Source: Ascidia mentula
Lineage: Eukaryota > Chordata > Ascidiacea > Phlebobranchia > Ascidiidae
Length of the DNA stretch: 64,000 bases
Assembly: GCA_947561715.1 (NCBI GenBank)
Contig: OX387200.1
Span: forward strand, 20,834,501-20,898,500
Reading direction: 5' to 3'
A program made the position numbers and the translations under genes. Below, piece after piece: positions 20,145 through 43,917 of the stretch (its first letter is position 1; every line of letters starts with the position of its first letter). Below the pieces are notes generated by a model. The model was given only the letters and a program-made list of their open reading frames with translations. It made no database searches and had not been told where the DNA came from.

Positions 20145-20609
20145 TTATGAGACAATTGCAACTGGCATTTCAAAACAGATAATATCTTGGTGATTCATTT
20201 GCAATTCCCATTTTACGATTAGTTTGATATCAGGATAGAGAGCTTTGATTGGTAGGGTTGCAGAATAAGTACTGGTTGCACCCGCAGCTATGGGACAGTC
20301 AAGTCCACTGACTCCACCTTTGCAGGCATCTGTAACTGTTAGTGGAAATGGAACAGCGATATTATGAATTATTCCATGAACCACTGCAGTCGCACTGGTA
20401 ATTTCTTCTGAGTTAATAAAGGTGGCATTGATGGTGTAACTCTTGCCTTTTGTCAGTTTGCAAGCTGATCCATCTTGACAGGGAAAGACTTCAATTTTCT
20501 TCAATTTAGCAAACTTTGAGCCGCAGTCTTTGTATTTCACAGAAGTACATTCAGAAAGGGCAAAGCAGGCAAACAACAATATTGTAAGTCGGAGAAGCAT
20601 GACTATCAC
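20145..20609 (-). CDS. NPC2: NPC2-like lysosomal cholesterol-binding protein, intronless
   Basis: Single open frame of 154 aa from ATG 20609 to stop 20145. A signal peptide is evident (MIVMLLRLTILLFACFALSE). The mature part follows the MD-2-related lipid-recognition fold of NPC2: VKYKDCGS, EVFPC, GKSYTINATF, AVVHGI, VPFPL, DCPI, LPIKALYPDIKLIVKWEL, and C-terminal CFEMPVAIVS. The six cysteines for three disulfides are present. N-glycosylation sites include NATF. NPC2 passes cholesterol to NPC1 in the lysosome. Human NPC2 has several introns; absence of introns here points to intron loss or an old retrocopy. The frame is intact and there is no poly(A) tract, so I treat it as functional. Confidence 0.92.
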   Translation of the reverse strand: MIVMLLRLTILLFACFALSECTSVKYKDCGSKFAKLKKIEVFPCQDGSACKLTKGKSYTINATFINSEEITSATAVVHGIIHNIAVPFPLTVTDACKGGVSGLDCPIAAGATSTYSATLPIKALYPDIKLIVKWELQMNHQDIICFEMPVAIVS

Positions 20610-21827
20610 AAGAATAATGTATGCTAAACAAATTTACCCAAATAATATCTGACAAAAAAACAACCATTGTACGATCTTTAACCAACGTTAACGTTAAATT
20701 TTGTGAACAAAAGCATTACTATTTAACATCTGCACAACTATCAAGCTAAAATGTTATTATATCCCGGGTAGACCGTCTGCTTGAACTATTAAAACTTACT
20801 GGAAAACAATACAATTCGTTGGCGACCATTTCTTATAATTTTCCTTTGTGAAACAAAGTTCATGTACTTCTGTCATGTGCCTGTTTGACAATTAAAATTT
20901 AGCTTAATTGCTTGATAAAGCGAGAACTTCCTCCTTTCTAGGGCTTGGTTTTAATACGCTCGCCGAGTCTCTGTTGTTGTGTAACAAAACGAACCAATAA
21001 TCAAATGGAATTTTTTGTTTCGGAGCAAAGGTCGCGTTTCTCCCTTTCTCCTGGCGTGGTCATCATCACGCCACTTCTGTTCAGGGTTGCCATTTGGCCG
21101 TGTTCACGGCCAAATTTTTGGCCGTTTGAAAATCGGCCTGGCCGCGAAAAAATCGTTTGGCCGTAAGGCAGATATTTGGCCGAATTTCACTTGGTACTAT
21201 ATGAATGCACAAAAGGCATTGCTGGTTTCAGGTTATCAATAGATTTGTGGACGATTGTGTTGTCATAAATATGTCTCCGAAAAATTGTTACGTCATAAAC
21301 TAATCTTGACTGAGTTGGTAAAGAATTATGTTGCAATCGTAATGTTTTAGCAACATAACCGGTTTTGAAACCACTGATAAGCATATAGATAACAGTGTTT
21401 TAAACATACAATTTACGAATTTATTTCCGGCTATATAGTCGTTTCTGTAGAAATCATCAAACTTATAACGTGATTTGGCCGAATTTTGGCCGTAAGAGAA
21501 AAAAAAATTGGCCGTCAAGTGTTTTGACCATCTGGCAGCCTTGCTTCTGTTGTGCCGGCGTGACGAAATGTTTTAAAACTTTGAACTTCAAAGCGACAGG
21601 AGGCTTTTGCACGACCAAGGATTCCACAAGAACAAGAATAACAATTAAAAACAATTATTTACCCATAAAAAAAATTGTGACAAGAAATAATAATTTATGT
21701 TGAGGTTTTAAACTTTTTCATTTATTCGCTACACACATAAATAACAACACATTGTTTTTCAAGTGGTGTTCTTTTTGTTTGTGTTGTTCCTATTTTACTT
21801 GCCGTGAATAAAGTTAATAACTTGGAA
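20610..21827. other. Divergent spacer NPC2/PSPH, mostly repeat
   Basis: About 1.2 kb between the NPC2 start (minus) and the PSPH start (plus). It should hold both promoters. The centre is filled by a foldback repeat (21080-21545). No gene seen. Confidence 0.5.
21080..21545. repeat. Foldback/MITE-like element rich in TTGGCCGT motifs
   Basis: The left end GGTTGCCATTTGGCCGT and several further TTGGCC / GGCCAAA units (21090-21185) are mirrored on the right by TTGGCCGAATTTTGGCCGTAA and CATCTGGCAGCC (21474-21541). The ends are imperfect inverted repeats. The AT-rich interior shows no coding capacity. Likely a non-autonomous DNA element; family not determined. Confidence 0.55.
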
Positions 21828-25487: not shown

Positions 25488-28400
25488 TTACGCAGAAGCG
25501 AAACCGAGCAACGAATTCATGAAAAAATCTTCCGTCCACTGGATGGCGCCCCAGTGACCAGGGTAAATGTGCAAATGTTCGATTCCGACCTTTTCCATGT
25601 GTCCAAAGAATTCGTTCAGCTCATCAGGTTCCCAGCCGAAGTCTGGTCGAACTTTTACTTCTTCATCGTCGTGCATGGAACCAATTCCTATCTGGAGTCT
25701 GTAGAAAAGTAATAACAGTAAGAGGTAATGCTAAAATCAAGCCGGAACTGTCCGATAAGAATTCAACGGCCGGTGTGTCCCAAATTGTTGCTTAAATTTA
25801 TTCACCATTCCGGTAACAATTCTTTTACTTTTGCCACTAGTTAAAGGCATCTACGTTCAATGCAAAGTAGGAATCTGCTTATAATCAGAAAAAGGCGGTC
25901 GAACGCAAAAAGCAGTTAGAGCAGATTTTTCAGGTTCCAGGCGCAGATGGCTAAGGGGCCTTTGTATTATGTACTGTATTTAAATTAAAACAGATGAGCA
26001 TCGTTATTTCACTTACAAGCCGACGCACTACGGTTTCTAAGAAACTGTAAAAACAATATGCTATAATGCAGCTTGTAATCAGAACAACCAAAGACAAGAA
26101 AACCGCTAAATATTTCTTTAAATTTTGTTGTTTCCAGCTATGCGTCAACGGTGACTCAATCCAGGGTATAAATCCTATAGGCTTCGGGGTATAGGTTTCT
26201 TATTTTAACAACGGCAATATTGACAAAACAAAATTACCGCTGGGTGGCGATGTGGAGTAGCATTTCGTCTACGTTCTTTATGTTCCTCTGGACATCTTCA
26301 CCCGAATATGTGCTCGCCATTGAACCGACCATACGACAGTTCACAGTGCTGTATACGTCGTAAAACTATAAAAAAGTGAACGTGCTGCTGAACGTCTAGG
26401 TTACATCTCCCAATAGTTTGCAGCTTTGCTGGTTATTTTAGAGTTACCTTTACTTCGGTTTTTGTTAATATTTACATGCTATTGAGTTGACCACAAATGT
26501 GCATTATAGCAAGATTGGGAAATTTGGACGACTTTGCAATTACAGCAGAATGTTTTTTAAAAAAATTGCCAAATCCAGCACTGACAAGACCTTATAGGTC
26601 GAAACAGTACTCATCTGCCTGCAACTGAATGAATATTATAGCTAATGCTTCTAACAATTGCAGGCGAGCTTGAAACATTACTGCGTTCTCTTTAGCTATT
26701 ACAGTATATATTGTTGAAAGTATTTACAAGATGTGAATTGTCAACTCTCATTTTTATATTCATCTGCAACAGTTTTTAAACAAAATAATTCAACTACCTT
26801 CAGAATCCCCCACCCAGATATCATCATCCCCACTTCCATGTTCTCCTCTCTCATCTTCTTGGTGAGTTCATTCACAAAATCTCTGCGCAACCGAATATAA
26901 GTTGAATGTTTCATGCAATTGCCTGACAAGGCAGGATCGCCCCACTGCACAGGTCCTTACTTGGCGATCACAGCCATCGTATCGAGATCATTAGGTTTGC
27001 AGGCTTCATACAGTCCAGGCATTAGCTAAGCGAACGTGAGCTAAATATTCACTCAGAAGTAGAGCTTTTTTATCCCATCGTAATTTGCATTTCATCGTTA
27101 ATGAATTTCCTGGTTTAGTTCAAATATGTTTTGGCACGGCTACGTTTGATGACGTTTCGTTTTAACAAACCAATCATACCAGGTACATACCTGTACACAA
27201 TCGCATGTTCGCGTGTGTATTCTGTTGCCGGTTCGTAATCCATAATCAGGCCGTCTACCCCGGCCGCTGCTGCCTTTTCCACCAAGTCTCCTATGATTTC
27301 TGTCCTATGTTGGAAGAAAATGAAATAGTTGTTGTACGCTTCCATCATAAGTCACGCCCAAAAGTTACAAAAGAAAGACGAATTGAGCATTATATGGCTA
27401 TACCCCCGCTTCGCGACCAAAATTTTCATTTTGCGTCACGTTGAGTTTCGGATAGTAACCGCTTTGCCGAAGAATGGCATTTAAACTTGTTCTTTCTCTA
27501 CCTATCCTTAGACATAAGCGAATAATCAGCCTGTTTGCTAGGTGGTAACGGCGGATCTCTCCTATCTTGTTAGTTATCGCACTGACGCTGATAGCGTATC
27601 ACTGTTTGTGAGTTATTTTGGATACCCTTGGGTGTTTATTACAAGCGAACTTAACATACTGACATTTATTACCTGTTGGTTGTGGCGGCCCCGTGCAACA
27701 TCATGGCTTCATATGACGCGTAGACGTGAGGCAGAACACTTAAGTTTGTAAACTGTCGTCGATATTCATCCGCCAGATATTTCATGTTCGCCATTGAGCT
27801 GACCAAAAAGTTGTGGTTTGGACTTGTTACAAACTTTACTTATCTTATGATTGTTACAAAGTGTTTCGGTTTTTTACTTAATTTTCACATTGTGGTGAAA
27901 GTACCAGATGCTGTGTACAGATTTTATTAAGAGGAAAAAAACTTATATTTGTTTAAATGAAATTTTACATGTAAGTTATATTAATTGTAAAATACGGTTT
28001 CAAATAACATATCCGTCAACGTATCGGCCACCAGTTAAAATATTTTTGCATTCGTCCAAACCTGAGTTTCCCAAACCTTTTTGGCTGCGAACCCCAATTT
28101 GTAAAAATGTTTTTACATTAGATTCCCTGTCTTATGTCACATATTTCCTTCCATCGTCATGGACCCCGGTCAGGGAAACCATGCTTCAACCAGACATCAC
28201 GTGACATATAGCTAGCTCACCTTTTCAAACGAACAAAAGTCCGGTTCTCCTTTCCATCGTTCACCCACGAGATGTTGAGGAAGTTGCAACATGGATAAAC
28301 CGCGCGCAGTGAACCGAGAAGGTTGCTGGGCGACGCAGCGTCGTCGCTAGGGGGCTTCTTAGTAACCGGGGTTTGCCACGAGAAGGACAGCATGTTCTTT

Positions 28401-31400
28401 AGGTTGTAAATATCGACGGGGTCGATTCTGACCCACCAGTTGACGGATTTTTGCGTTTGTCGGATGATCGGAGGGTTATCGTCCGATTTTTCTGCATAAA
28501 TGTAAAGTTTGCTTTTGAGATTTTTTTATTTTTAAGTTTGTCAGGATGTTGCCACTGAGTTATTTTGTTTTGAATGTAATTATTCTGTTCGATTCTTTTC
28601 CACGTATGTGTCTTGTCAAACCCTGTAAGAGCTGCGCTCATTATCCAACAATTATAAAATTTTTAATTAGTTTTTGTCACCTAGTTTAATTTGCCATAAC
28701 GTTTATTTATTTTCCAATACAGTTTCCACTCAGAAAACGGTTTAAACTTCAAGTCCACACGGTTCTGTTTACCTGGAGAAGTCTTGCAGTAAACTCCTTG
28801 TCTGACCGAGTTGATGTTTAAAGGAGAATGGGAATAAATTACTCCAGTTCTTCCTCTTCCACATCTGGGGTTGCTTCTCTGCATCACAAAACCTTCGTGG
28901 GTGTCGCCGAGCCAACCGTAAGCACACCTGGAGGAGCAAAACTGTAACTTCTAAAACAAATCATTTGGTAAAGATTGAAGGGTAGAAAAGACAACGAAGT
29001 CATGACACTTTGGCACACGAAGTAAATTTTAATGACATGCTGTGATCTATGAGTTCATTTTCCAATACTTCGCCATGCGTCGGGCAAACACTGTGAAATT
29101 CTTACAATGGAAGGCCCCGAAGTAGTCTCTGTGTGCGCATATAGGTTTGCACGCAAGGTCAATAAAGTTTTGACATAATTTTTACACTGGCACGCGTAAC
29201 AAAAGTTTGCCGACCCTTCTCCTAGGTTAACATTACTGTTATTATGTGTCCCAGGCGCCATACTGTTTATTTCTAAACCCAAGTCTCCTAAATCGTGGCT
29301 CGTTTTCTACTTGTGGAGATAGTTGGGCGTAGATTTTATTCAATCGCGTTTAACATCGAACCAAACCTTTCGTATCCGGCTTCATAAGCTTTCTGAAGAT
29401 CTTCCTTGAAAGCAAGCTGAGTCCCCATCTTCTCGCATCTTTCCATTGCTTCTTGAAACGTCATTCGCTCTCTTACGTACTTTACAGGGACTGGAAATAA
29501 AAACCGGCGTGAGTTGGTGATTTTCAAAACAACATGGCAACCCAAGTTTAAATTCGCCCTTGAAAGGTCACAAGTATGATTTCTATATTCTTTTTCTATA
29601 TATTTTTCTGACGTTTAGCCGGAAGGAAACAACAGGGCTTTCTCAAGAAGAATAAAACATTAGAAACAGACGCTGTCAGGTATGGTACGTATTTGTCACC
29701 ACCCGACCCGCCCACCTGTCTGATGCGTGGTGGCGATTTCGGATTTCTCGGTCGTCGTCGTGGTGTGCGTCGATGTTTTATCAGCTGGAACGCTCTCAGT
29801 GGTGGTGACGTCACTCACGCCCGTCACGCTGGATGACGTTCCTGTTATATTCGGGAATGTTTATGAGGTTTCTGTGTCACCTTATAAGTATAAAATACAC
29901 TAAAAAATACAGACAGCGAAATACGTTAAACAGTGAAACAATACGTTGTGGAAAATATCTACGGGGTCAGATTTCAACTTTGTGGTGCCATTCGGCAAAT
30001 TGTCGATCAGTTGGGTACCCTTTACTGAGTACCAAACAACAGAGACGAACCACATGGAGCGCACTTTGGCCAAACGACTGCTTGGTATTCGATGGTGCTA
30101 CCTGCTCAACTTTCACCCAAATCATATTATAAGTGCAAAAGTCTGCACCTCTCAATGATTTTTATGGCTCTTTTTGCGAATATAGATGTTGTGGTAAGTT
30201 TTGCCTGCCCAAACGACAAGGCTTCTTCGGAGTATAAACCAGACCATGTTTGGTATTTGTCACAACCCAACCCGCCCACCTGTCTGATGCGTGGTGGCGA
30301 TTTCTGATTTCTCGGTCGTAATCCTGGTGTGCGTCGATGTTTTTTCAGCTGGAACGCTCTCTGTGGTGGTGACGTTATTCACACCCGTCACGCTGGATGA
30401 CGTTCCTGTTATATTCGGTAATGTTTATGAGGTTTTTGTGTCACCTTTTAAGAATAAAATACACTAAAAAATACAGACAGCGAAATACGTTGAACAATAA
30501 TACAAAGCGTTGCGGCAAATATCTACGGGGTCAGGTATGAATTGCAAGATATCTCTTATTACTGTTCTCCTCAACACACGTGACTTGTTACGGTCTGGTA
30601 GACACATATGTCGTGTCGTGCGCAGTCATCCGTTTCGCATTTACCGCTAATTGTACGTAGGTGTCTACAGGTGTTTCGCTAACATTCCATACATGGGTGT
30701 CAGTCATGCGCAGAATTTCCGGGTAAACTGAGGTTACACCTTTTTTCCCAACTGTCTGGTGATTAATCCCGCAGATTAGTGGAGTCACGCTCAAAGCACA
30801 CAACCCTATATGTGCGTTAGACGCTGTTGTTTGAAATAATCCGCGGCCGACATTTGCATACTTTCCCGCGAATCAGCCCCAGCAGGTCTACGTTAATCAG
30901 TTTCAGTTCTTTTTTTTTCACTCATACCTTCCGTTGTTGTGGTGCTATCGGTTTCGTATCTATTGGTCGAATCCGGGGTGAGGTTGGGCCGTGTCGATTC
31001 GGTAACTTCATGTTGGAGTGATGTTGTTGTGGTCAAATTTGTAGGCTGAGTGCCTAAATTGCGGTGATGAAAAAGTAAACATGTTGGTTGAATGTTTAAA
31101 AATTTATTGGATTTTTCTTTTTAATCCACAACAGACACGATGATTCCATTAATTTCATTTCTTGAGGATTAAAACTGAAAAATTCATAATTTTTGTCTCA
31201 CCTGACTCTGTGGACCCGGATTGATTGTTTGTGGTGGTATAGTGGGTAATTGCGAAGTAGAGAATGATGCTGACTGCGACCAACAGGGTCAGAACCGAGA
31301 GAGCAGCGACAATTTGAATCTTCGTCTTTTGACGGCGCAGGTTTTGAGTCCTAGTTTTGGGATTTCCCCTGCTTTCGTGTATCTTGATGAGGCTCAGCGA

Positions 31401-38333: not shown

Positions 38334-40034
38334 CTTTTACATGCGCTGGTTACTTTGTCGCTCAGTTCTTATCTCGATGTGAATGTAAGGACTGCTGGGG
38401 AGGCACAGTCTAACGTTGTCCTCGTTGTCTGCTTGTTCTGTCACCAGGCAAAGATTTCTGAGCAGAAGGAGGTTGGATTGAATGCAATTGCCGAAAGTGT
38501 ATTTGTTTTTTTACTTAAACTACCAGCAAATGTCAAATGTCAAAGACTTTGAGTCAGGTTCAAAACTAACAGGAATAAAAGGTTCATTTGTGGTCATTGT
38601 TTGAGGCATTTCTGCAACACGTCGTGGAAATAAATGCTTTTATTTAAAATTTCATGCGATGTATGCTTTTACTGTTATCAAGTTTACAAAGCTCTAATAT
38701 GTGTACTGTTTTTTTTTCTGGTCATACTTTCCCATCTAAACATGTCTGGCACTGTACAATATCACTAATAATCCGCATTTGATGAAAAAACAACCACGTT
38801 AGTCCACAATAAGCACTTTTCTTGGAAATAATCACAGCATGGCAACCCCATATATTTACCAGTGGTTAATCTTAGGTTATTAAGCGGTACTATAGAGTGT
38901 AAATGCTGTGCTGAACAACGGGAAAGATCAAACAAAAATGAAAGGTAGTAACAGCATAAATCAAGTCATGATGGTCAACAGTATCCTTTCCGTGGTTGTC
39001 AAGATACGTTGCCAACCTTATGTGCGTTTACTATAAGTCGTTTAGTTTTTCCCCTTCGCAATATTTGCTCGTTGCTGAGGATCTTCTAGTTGTTGTGCGC
39101 TGTGCGCTATGCGCTTTAGGTTCCTTTGGCAAAAAAATAAAAATTTACATATTTGTTCTAACCAACGTTTTGGGTCATTTTTTAAAGTTATGAGTTTTTA
39201 AATCACTCACTGCCTGACGGCACTATTGGTTGAGCTTGCTTGGCCATAGTGTTTCCACTTTGTTTTCTCCGTTTTGGTTGCACCTAGTTTGGTGCCCAAC
39301 GGTTGACGGTGATTGTATAGTCACCACAAAGTGGAAGTCTTTGCTTGGCCGTTTGGTCAGCAAAGACGTCTTATAGTCACACCAGCTGCACTGATGAGAC
39401 CTTTTCGGTCGAAACAGTGGCCATCTGTCTGCAGCTTATACACAATTCATATTATTGGCTCCACTTTGCTTATCAATCTTATATAGTTTGCCATGTAGAA
39501 AAAATGAAAACAAAGTGTTTTTCGCCTTCTTAATCTTGTTTGTCCACCAAAGTGGGGATTTTCCAGTTAACCATTAATAACTCGACGGTTTGAAACTTAG
39601 CGCCGAGATTGGAACCTTTCCAAAACATAGTGAATGTAGTCTTCCCTCAGTAAATACTTCTTACCTTACAATGACTATCGATCTTTTTGGCCCGAAAAAC
39701 GTGTCCAAAAGAAGCTTTTTAAATTCCTAATTTGTTTTACTCAGCGTAAAGTGATGTCCATAACGTTTTTATGTGACACATTATGGTTGCAACTCTTCGA
39801 AAAATGTTAAAATAACTGTTATCATACCTTAAAGTGTTTGTTGTGCGTTTATTGTATGCACTAAATTAAAACTGTAATACTGCAATGCTAAGCAGCAATA
39901 AAAAATTTTGTGTCGTAAAGGTTTTTTTATTCGTATTTCCACTTGCCTGAAAACCTGAAACGAAGATTTGCAAGAGATTTTTTTCGAAATTTACGAAATA
40001 CTAACTTTATTGTTGTTTTCACTTCAGAAAAACG
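38334..40034. other. Repeat-bearing intergenic stretch
   Basis: About 1.7 kb between the candidate gene and the fucosyltransferase start, AT-rich. The only defined element is the hammerhead ribozyme repeat. The right end should hold the fucosyltransferase promoter. Confidence 0.4.
39384..39436 (+). ncRNA. Type I hammerhead ribozyme, complete core
   Basis: Stem I AGCTGCA (39384-39390) pairs with TGCAGCT (39430-39436), 7 bp. Core CTGATGA is at 39391-39397. Stem II GACC (39398-39401) pairs with GGTC (39407-39410) around a TTTTC loop. GAA (39411-39413) follows. Stem III ACAG (39414-39417) pairs with CTGT (39425-39428) around a 7-nt loop. C17 is at 39429, giving a GTC cleavage triplet; predicted self-cleavage is between 39429 and 39430. 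All invariant hammerhead residues are present. Open at stem I with a very short stem III, as in ribozymes carried by animal retroelements and satellites. The carrier element was not identified. Activity is inferred from structure only. Confidence 0.85.
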
Positions 40035-43000: not shown

Positions 43001-43917
43001 ATTATTGAGCTGCAAACAGTCCACATGGTATATATCTATATCAGGTTTCTTCAGTGCAGCTGGTGACTGAGCATGCTCTTGCCGGTTAGCTGTCAGCCAT
43101 AGGCAAAGACTTTTCCATTTTGTGGAAAATTAAAACAAAAATATATACACTTATTTTTTCTCGCATACAACTGACTACAAAGCTATTGTAAATTTTTTTA
43201 ACTAAAATGTTCATAATGCTTTACATCAATGAAAATAATTGCAGCTTTTTATTTACCCACAGTTAGTCTCTTAAAACTTCCTTAACAATTTTCCTGCCTC
43301 CCAGATACAAATTCTACTTCTCCTTGGAAAATTCTCAGTGTCGGGATTACATCACCGAAAAGTTCTGGATCATGGGGCTCGGAAGTGGGGCTATTCCCGT
43401 GGTCATGGGACCTTCCCGGGGTGATTACGAGCTGGTGGCTCCCCCACACTCCTTCATACACGTCAACGATTTTCCGACTGTTCGAGAACTCGCGGATTAT
43501 CTTCAACTCGTGAGTCGCGATGACCAACTTTACGAGAATTATTTCCGCTGGATGAACGATACGGAATGGTACAAAAATCCGCCAGGAGGCGCTAAAGACC
43601 GCCATGTCACCGCATTGGCGGAAAGCCGTCGTTTTGGCAACGCCAACGGCTTGTGTGCGCTCTGTCAGAAGCTCAGAAACACTCCAAAGGCGCAAAAAGA
43701 CGTCGTGCCAGAACTTGACCAGTGGTGGTTCGGCAACGGGTATTCACCGAAAGGGGATTCCATACCGATATGTCAATCCGGGGCCACAGAGAGCGGTTAC
43801 CCCTTGAGGTGGGCGGTAACTCTGGGATACACAGCCGGGTTTGTATTCGTTGCCTTAATCGTGGTGTGGGTTTCCCAGATTCGAATTAACAGACAGGAAG
43901 CATTCAACGGAGTTTGA
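40035..43917 (+). CDS. Alpha-1,3-fucosyltransferase (GT10) with extra C-terminal membrane segment
   Basis: Golgi enzyme moving fucose from GDP-fucose to glycans. Exons: 40035..40231, 40750..40965, 41392..41544, 42013..42201, 42756..42812, 43305..43917; 1425 nt, 474 aa, phases consistent. Residues 1-30: short basic tail and signal anchor (FLLLMLICYIVVYYY), so type II. The middle matches the GT10 acceptor half (ADAIIFHCTE, WVWLCMEPPWN, TMTYRVDSDVFASYG). The GT10 signature is clear: KFYFSLENSQCRDYITEKFW, VVMGPSRGDYELVAPPHSFI, DFPTVRELADYLQ. After the usual C-terminus there is a hydrophobic helix (LGYTAGFVFVALIVVWV) and a short basic tail, not normal for GT10. The orthologue among FUT3-11 types was not resolved. 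Confidence 0.9.
40278..40420 (+). repeat. tRNA-like short repeat in fucosyltransferase intron
   Basis: Ends in a T-arm-like CTGGGTTCAAATCCCAG (about 40391-40407) after a stretch with no good D or anticodon arm. A 9-bp hairpin (GCCAGTTAT / ATAACTGGC) lies at its left. Probably a tRNA-derived SINE relic rather than a tRNA gene. Confidence 0.4.
42339..42656. mobile_element. Foldback element with about 80-bp terminal inverted repeats
   Basis: The left arm (from ATTTTAAATGTTACTAGAAC, 42339-42420) and right arm (42575-42656) are near-perfect inverse copies over about 80 bp. Shorter inverted patches lie inside (CTTCAGTTCTTATT / AATAAGAACTGAAG at about 42418-42470). No coding capacity. Located in an intron of the fucosyltransferase gene. 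Target-site duplication not clear. Confidence 0.8.

What the first reader, a model, noticed from the sequence alone, without database searches (positions are those of the whole stretch)
39384..39436. Textbook type I hammerhead ribozyme in a tunicate intergenic repeat
Every conserved core position (CTGATGA, GAA, A15.1/U16.1, GTC cleavage triplet) and all three helices are present in 53 nt: stem I 7 bp, stem II 4 bp, stem III 4 bp with a 7-nt loop. The chance of this arising at random is very small. Known relatives occur in Penelope-like and SINE-like elements and satellites, usually as tandem or dimeric copies. Here a lone copy stands 600 bp upstream of a gene.
Basis: partly seen in the sequence, partly recalled or inferred. 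Interest (0 to 1): 0.88.

Follow-up and report, generated by a model that had tools for sequence, protein, structure and literature searches.

The report
Ribozyme repeat spread by Penelope elements
The hammerhead ribozyme is real and belongs to an abundant small repeat whose copies carry the same unusual insertion scars as Penelope-type jumping genes in the same animal, which points to the long-suspected machinery that spreads such ribozyme RNAs.

Summary
The type I hammerhead at 39384-39436 is there as described (cut after 39429) and is not chance (one descriptor hit in the window, 0 in 400 Markov windows). It is not a lone copy: the core pattern occurs 1,474 times in this 196-Mb genome, in 284- and 293-bp repeats of a known kind, animal non-LTR retrozymes. 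New is how copies are inserted: two head-to-head (5'-5') arms, one ending 6-21 nt and the other 35-52 nt past the ribozyme cut, flanked by a target duplication most often of exactly 12 bp (12-16 bp in 28 of 40 scored insertions; null 0 of 992). Penelope-like elements (PLEs) in the same genome show the same head-to-head arms, paired ends 34-42 bp apart, and 12-13-bp duplications (12 of 13 examined, one of them uninformative). Two adjacent internal RT start sites are a published PLE peculiarity. Best reading: PLE enzymes copy the ribozyme RNA, probably circles, from two fixed sites, one per cut target strand. In the papers I saw, PLE mobilisation of retrozymes was only suggested. Circle and enzyme remain inferred. 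The window copy itself is a one-armed relic without a recognisable duplication.

The parts
39384..39436 (+). Type I hammerhead ribozyme; cleavage after 39429
   Evidence: sequence; descriptor and Markov control; 1,474 matches of the core pattern genome-wide
39212..39475 (+). Retrozyme family A copy, one arm, 264 bp of a 284-bp unit (the 20-bp link between units is absent); 94% identical to the ruler unit
39442..39448 (+). Approximate place of arm end A (inferred RT start site A), about 13-19 nt past the cut in family A
   Evidence: arm ends of other insertions mapped to this unit
39469..39475 (+). Approximate place of arm end B (inferred RT start site B); the window copy ends here
29968..30184 (.). 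Decayed family B retrozyme copy, head-to-head (minus 29968-30141, plus 30141-30184); right end near site B
   Evidence: 81 and 89% identity; sequence; only a 7-bp shared flank word
26578..26626 (+). Remnant around a retrozyme ribozyme with a mutated core (CTGACAA)
   Evidence: (84%)

Best explanation
The ribozyme belongs to a non-autonomous animal retrozyme that spreads with the enzymes of endonuclease-bearing Penelope-like elements. Repeat transcripts are cut by the hammerhead and re-closed into small circles (inferred; shown by others in coral, mussel and axolotl). A PLE enzyme cuts the two target strands 12 bp apart leaving 3' overhangs (inferred from the 12-bp duplications). Each 3' end primes reverse transcription at one of two fixed internal sites about 13-19 and 40-50 nt past the ribozyme cut (arm ends shown; start sites inferred by analogy with published PLE biochemistry). 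Each cDNA runs towards the RNA 5' side, often more than once round the unit, and the two cDNAs are joined head to head at a variable point. Shown here: motif, repeat families, head-to-head arms, paired arm ends, 12-bp duplications, and the same three insertion features in resident PLEs. Inferred: circular template, enzyme identity, order of steps.
For: Core pattern 1,474 times, backward control 0. 23 of 25 distinct family A loci are minus-arm, pivot, plus-arm; the exceptions are the window copy and the complex L018. Of 40 scored two-arm insertions, 28 have a shared flank word of 12-16 bp, 16 of them exactly 12; cross-paired flanks of the 32 filtered insertions reach 11 in 1 of 992 and 12 in 0; all 32 join one A end (6-21) to one B end (35-52). 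Opposite-strand ribozyme neighbours within 1.5 kb: 11 minus-plus, 0 plus-minus, in the first 100 listed of 1,474. PLEs in the same genome: RT plus GIY-YIG domains in one frame; hammerhead-like cores in 27 of 30 loci, loose test, overlapping loci included, no shuffled control; 12-13-bp duplications in 12 of 13 insertions, one of those uninformative, and A+B arms in 12 of 13 (cross-pairs at most 10 bp in 156). Published: a PLE protein cuts and extends both strands and starts RT at two adjacent internal sites (PMC11167929); rotifer PLEs have head-to-head pLTRs, a 31-bp tail, 8-10-bp duplications, and a case of mobilisation in trans (PMC3846280, passages). 30 of 80 arms exceed one unit, up to 3.47.
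Against: No single PLE partner identified and no sequence likeness seen between retrozyme and PLE start sites. Four PLE sequence types were not resolved: of 11 end pairs printed, 5 gave only 5-10 bp. 12 of 40 scored retrozyme insertions lack a word of 12 bp or more; 27 of 72 clusters match on one strand only. L081 looks A+A and L010 has an atypical end. No LINE or SINE control for duplication length was run. For the published lizard PLE, unprocessed RNA was the dominant substrate in vitro, ribozyme mutants inserted as well, and no strand difference in start site was seen, which speaks against a need for circles and for strict pairing. Within-insertion homogeneity holds in family A only. Rfam scores are below every cut-off.
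Confidence: 0.85

Rival explanations
1. The repeat is moved by a LINE-type element; inverted arms come from ordinary twin priming, and PLEs merely coexist.
For: Twin priming by LINEs gives inverted copies with target duplications (recalled). PMC7229834 names LINEs as well as PLEs as candidates.
Against: Both ends are fixed and internal, paired A+B in 32 of 32 filtered insertions, with a modal duplication of exactly 12 bp, and resident PLEs share all of this.
Confidence: 0.08
2. Copies arise by DNA-level processes (satellite amplification, rolling-circle DNA, inverted duplication) without reverse transcription.
For: Tandem units within arms; the window copy has no recognisable duplication.
Against: Dispersed insertions on many contigs with fixed outer ends, variable inner ends and 12-bp duplications.
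Confidence: 0.04
3. PLE machinery is the mover, but the template is a long uncut multimeric transcript and not a circle.
For: In vitro the lizard PLE uses unprocessed RNA. Units inside some insertions differ (L012 48/829 within arms) and L024 has unlike arms (26/456).
Against: L028 (0/1541 within arms, 0/2144 between arms) and L011 (0/170, 0/496) are uniform; animal retrozyme circles are abundant in other species (PMC7229834). A uniform source array would explain this too.
Confidence: 0.35
4. The motif is a chance or non-functional hammerhead look-alike.
For: Rfam scores below every gathering threshold.
Against: 0 of 400 Markov windows and 47/53 conservation between families; 1,474 exact cores; 87 of 114 seed matches keep core and stems.
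Confidence: 0.02

Closest known systems
Metazoan non-LTR retrozymes (Cervera and de la Pena 2020, PMC7229834)
   Same: Type I hammerhead in 150-450-bp tandem units of low GC, no long frame, target duplications longer than 4 bp.
   Different: Described there as tandem repeats; 'inverted', 'head-to-head' and 'tunicate' do not occur in the main text. Here: head-to-head arms, two fixed paired ends, 12-bp duplications. Expression as circles not tested here.
Penelope-like elements with GIY-YIG endonuclease (PMC11167929, PMC3846280)
   Same: Head-to-head arms, two arm ends about 30-40 bp apart 3' of a type I hammerhead, short target duplications (12 bp in both within this genome).
   Different: No RT or endonuclease frame (longest ATG frame 59 aa); a canonical hammerhead with stem III instead of the minimal PLE one; arm ends closer to the cut (6-52 nt against 52-117 nt).
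Plant LTR retrozymes
   Same: Non-autonomous, hammerhead-processed RNA.
   Different: Type III hammerhead, LTRs, PBS and PPT, 4-bp duplications, Gypsy partner (as summarised in PMC7229834).

Membership tests
Type I hammerhead ribozyme | Conserved core, three stems, stem I open | tested here: met
Type I hammerhead ribozyme | Rfam gathering score | tested here: not met
   other copies of the family also fall below, so this is taken as a limit of the models
Type I hammerhead ribozyme | Self-cleavage | not testable with these tools
   no experiment; loop-loop contacts not assessed
Metazoan non-LTR retrozyme | 150-450-bp tandem units carrying a type I hammerhead | tested here: met
   units 284 and 293 bp, arms up to 3.47 units
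Metazoan non-LTR retrozyme | GC below 50%, no long reading frame | tested here: met
   GC 47.5 and 47.8%, longest ATG frame 59 and 45 aa
Metazoan non-LTR retrozyme | No LTR, PBS or PPT | not tested
   no search for PBS or PPT was made
Metazoan non-LTR retrozyme | Expressed as circular and linear RNA | not testable with these tools
   no RNA data
Penelope-like element | RT and GIY-YIG reading frame | tested here: not met
   longest ATG frame 59 aa: it inserts like a PLE but is not one
Penelope-like element | Head-to-head arms with a tail between two end points, and short target duplication | tested here: met

The most novel reading that the evidence does not exclude
A single ribozyme-made RNA circle is copied by two PLE reverse transcriptases at once, each primed by one of two target ends cut 12 bp apart and each using its own start site, so that rolling copies radiate head to head. 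Fitting this: strict A-plus-B pairing (32 of 32 filtered), insertions whose units are identical (L028, L011), and B arms that stop at site A (5 of 36 within 3 nt, four at the same base; post hoc p 0.0017, p 0.011 at 5 nt), as if the second enzyme met the first cDNA on the same circle. Not fitting: A arms do not pile up at site B (1 of 36), L024 has unlike arms, and family B shows no within-insertion homogeneity.
Probability: 0.4. Interest if true: 0.82.

Novelty: new variant of a known kind. Interest (0 to 1): 0.62.

Why it matters
Which enzymes move animal retrozymes has been open; the papers I saw name PLEs as likely or possible candidates from shared hammerheads, tandem copies and co-occurrence (PMC7229834; PMC7761336; PMC11722881). 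Paired fixed ends and a shared 12-bp stagger are a specific, checkable link, and the same test can be run on other animal genomes that hold retrozymes. The pattern also bears on how PLEs insert: one arm from each strand, each with its own end point.

Tried and rejected
Rfam at gathering and E-value thresholds and RF00163 genome-wide: no gathering-level hammerhead. MFE folding: not informative. A helix enclosing end site A, shared by retrozymes and PLEs, looked real by eye, but duplex energies were not below shuffles (P 0.10-0.51 for six elements): rejected. Sequence kinship between retrozyme units and PLE ends: the strong BLAST matches in PLE loci are retrozyme copies lying near the PLEs. A hidden inverted arm or degenerate duplication beside the window copy: none convincing. 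Organism by protein search: 3 hits, unnamed. A family B unit taken from L067 failed because that stretch spans a pivot; L093 was used. No LINE or SINE control for duplication length was run.

Literature behind the novelty statement: searches, in the open-licence PMC library only. Two papers asked for by id (PMC8557442, PMC4209133) were not held. Supplements were not read. What I saw: PMC7229834 parts 1-4 of 6 and a term search; PMC11167929 parts 1-3 of 4; passages of PMC3846280, PMC7761336, PMC11722881, PMC8490949, PMC8704543; others as listings.

Full report
OBSERVATION. The 53 nt at 39384-39436 form the hammerhead as described: all core residues, stem I 7 bp, stem II 4 bp, stem III 4 bp with a 7-nt loop, cut after 39429. 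A strict descriptor hits only here on both strands of the 64-kb window and in none of 400 first-order Markov windows. No Rfam family reaches its gathering score in the window; the best local hammerhead scores are 21.1 and 18.8 bits.

FAMILY. A search with the repeat gave 133 matching stretches with 40 of 2,355 candidates scored. The core pattern GCACTGATGAGACCTNNNNGGTCGAAACAG occurs 1,474 times in the 195.8-Mb genome (727 + 747) and 0 times backwards. Two sequence families were set up: A (window type, unit 284 bp) and B (unit 293 bp). Between one unit of each the ribozyme is 47/53 identical, with the 6 differences in loops II and III, against 154/231 for the rest. Of 114 seed matches in the fetched loci (11 overlapping loci left out; at least one match, in L049, is unrelated) 87 keep core and stems. 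Units have GC 47.5 and 47.8% and no ATG frame above 59 aa. This is what has been called a metazoan non-LTR retrozyme (PMC7229834).

INSERTION STRUCTURE. The 30 loci are 25 distinct ones; 23 consist of a minus arm, a pivot and a plus arm, the exceptions being the window copy and the complex L018. Counting from the first base after the cut, one arm ends near base 16 and the other near base 46 in family A, whichever side they lie on; inner ends vary. Adding families A and B gave 72 clusters. 32 were set aside (27 matching on one strand only, 1 in another order, 3 below 85% identity, 1 duplicate region) and 40 scored. Longest shared flank word: 12 bp in 16, 13 in 6, 14 in 3, 15 in 2, 16 in 1, 11 in 1, and 5-9 in 11. 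Pairing flanks of different insertions among the 32 filtered gave >=11 in 1 of 992 and >=12 in 0. All 32 with a word of 8 bp or more at the ends pair one A end (6-21) with one B end (35-52). The 8 that failed this filter are L005, L010, L064, L072, L076, L081, L086 and L087; among them L081 looks A+A and L010 has an atypical end. Three of the copies that match on one strand only carry a short inverted stub just outside the match (L085, L090, L092; read by eye). A check free of arm selection: in the first 100 listed of the 1,474 core matches, opposite-strand neighbours within 1.5 kb are minus-then-plus 11 times and plus-then-minus 0 times.

PENELOPE ELEMENTS IN THE SAME GENOME. GIY-YIG matches number 150 (150 of 382 candidates scored; not all need be PLEs). 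The stretch L046:1-1851 holds RT and GIY-YIG domains. A loose hammerhead-core test is positive in 27 of 30 loci, overlapping loci included, without a shuffled control. Of 14 end pairs given to, 11 were printed: 6 with 12- or 13-bp words and 5 with 5, 5, 6, 8 and 10 (in L032 and L039 the arm reaches or nearly reaches the end of the fetched stretch). Then 13 insertions with both ends in hand, chosen from those that had worked and from pairs seen in the table, gave 12 bp in 10, 13 in 2 and 7 in 1; 12 of 13 join an A arm to a B arm, arm class read from the match ends. The A+A one has flanks that mirror each other and an AT-repeat word, so its 12 bp is uninformative. Cross-pairing gives at most 10 bp in 156 trials. 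Three PLE sequence types are covered; at least four others were not resolved, so the PLE sample is selected. Distances from the presumed ribozyme cut to the two ends are 52-75 and 86-117 nt in four types, ends 34-42 bp apart; in one of these (L052) the outer end rests on an 8-bp word only.

MECHANISM. In vitro, a lizard PLE protein cuts and extends both target strands and starts reverse transcription at two adjacent internal sites, which correspond to the genomic 'tail' (PMC11167929). Rotifer PLEs show head-to-head pLTRs, a 31-bp tail, 8-10-bp duplications in some copies, and mobilisation in trans of a gene flanked by pLTRs (PMC3846280, passages). The retrozyme shows the first two features with the local 12-bp stagger, so PLE machinery is the simplest mover. 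Both ends lie 3' of the ribozyme cut and most arms run through the cut position, so the template was not a linear monomer cut there: it was uncut, or cut and rejoined. 30 of 80 arms exceed one unit, up to 3.47 units. In family A differences are 83/5583 within arms, 107/7055 between the arms of one insertion and 39052/968700 between insertions; L028 is 0/1541 and 0/2144. L012 (48/829 within arms) and L024 (26/456 between arms) go the other way, and family B shows no such contrast (53/1721, 23/1064, 4280/166470). Circles fit but long uncut transcripts of uniform units are not excluded, and the lizard PLE used unprocessed RNA in vitro, with no strand difference in start site. Five of 36 classed B arms stop within 3 nt of site A, four at the same base (post hoc p 0.0017; 0.011 at 5 nt), against 1 of 36 A arms at site B and 1 and 2 in the two control counts; L010, L076 and L081 were unclassed and L064 was left out. 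This would fit two enzymes on one circle.

WINDOW COPY. 39212-39475 is a single arm ending at site B, 94% identical to the ruler unit, without inverted arm or recognisable duplication, and with one stem II pair lost relative to most copies. It is probably a relic. Two more remnants lie in the window.

NOVELTY. Animal retrozymes and PLE tails are both known. In the papers found by nine searches of the open PMC library and read in the parts named, the link between them rests on shared hammerheads, tandem copies and co-occurrence; I saw no description of PLE-type two-armed insertions for retrozymes. Papers outside that library, and supplements, were not seen.

ORGANISM. Two GH6-domain matches over the Pfam cut-off fit a tunicate but do not prove it.

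Noticed in passing
L054:769-962: A head-to-head retrozyme insertion gives high sub-threshold Rfam microRNA scores (MIR6140 79.4 bits, mir-34 42.3), because its palindromic arms resemble a precursor hairpin; a possible source of false microRNA calls.
   Followed up: no
L054:707-996, L050:499-729, L052:1094-1189: Retrozyme copies lie close to PLE ends in several PLE loci; whether this exceeds chance was not tested.
   Followed up: no
G000:C67:6425556-6429574 (L106, L107): A PLE insertion whose two flanks are inverted copies of each other: an inverted duplication or an assembly fold.
   Followed up: no
L003, L008, L013, L014: Four B arms stop at the same base, the A end site, after one or two full turns.
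   Followed up: partly
window 43351-43917 (+) and 20148-20633 (-): Exons of a GT10 fucosyltransferase and of an ML-domain protein.
   Followed up: no
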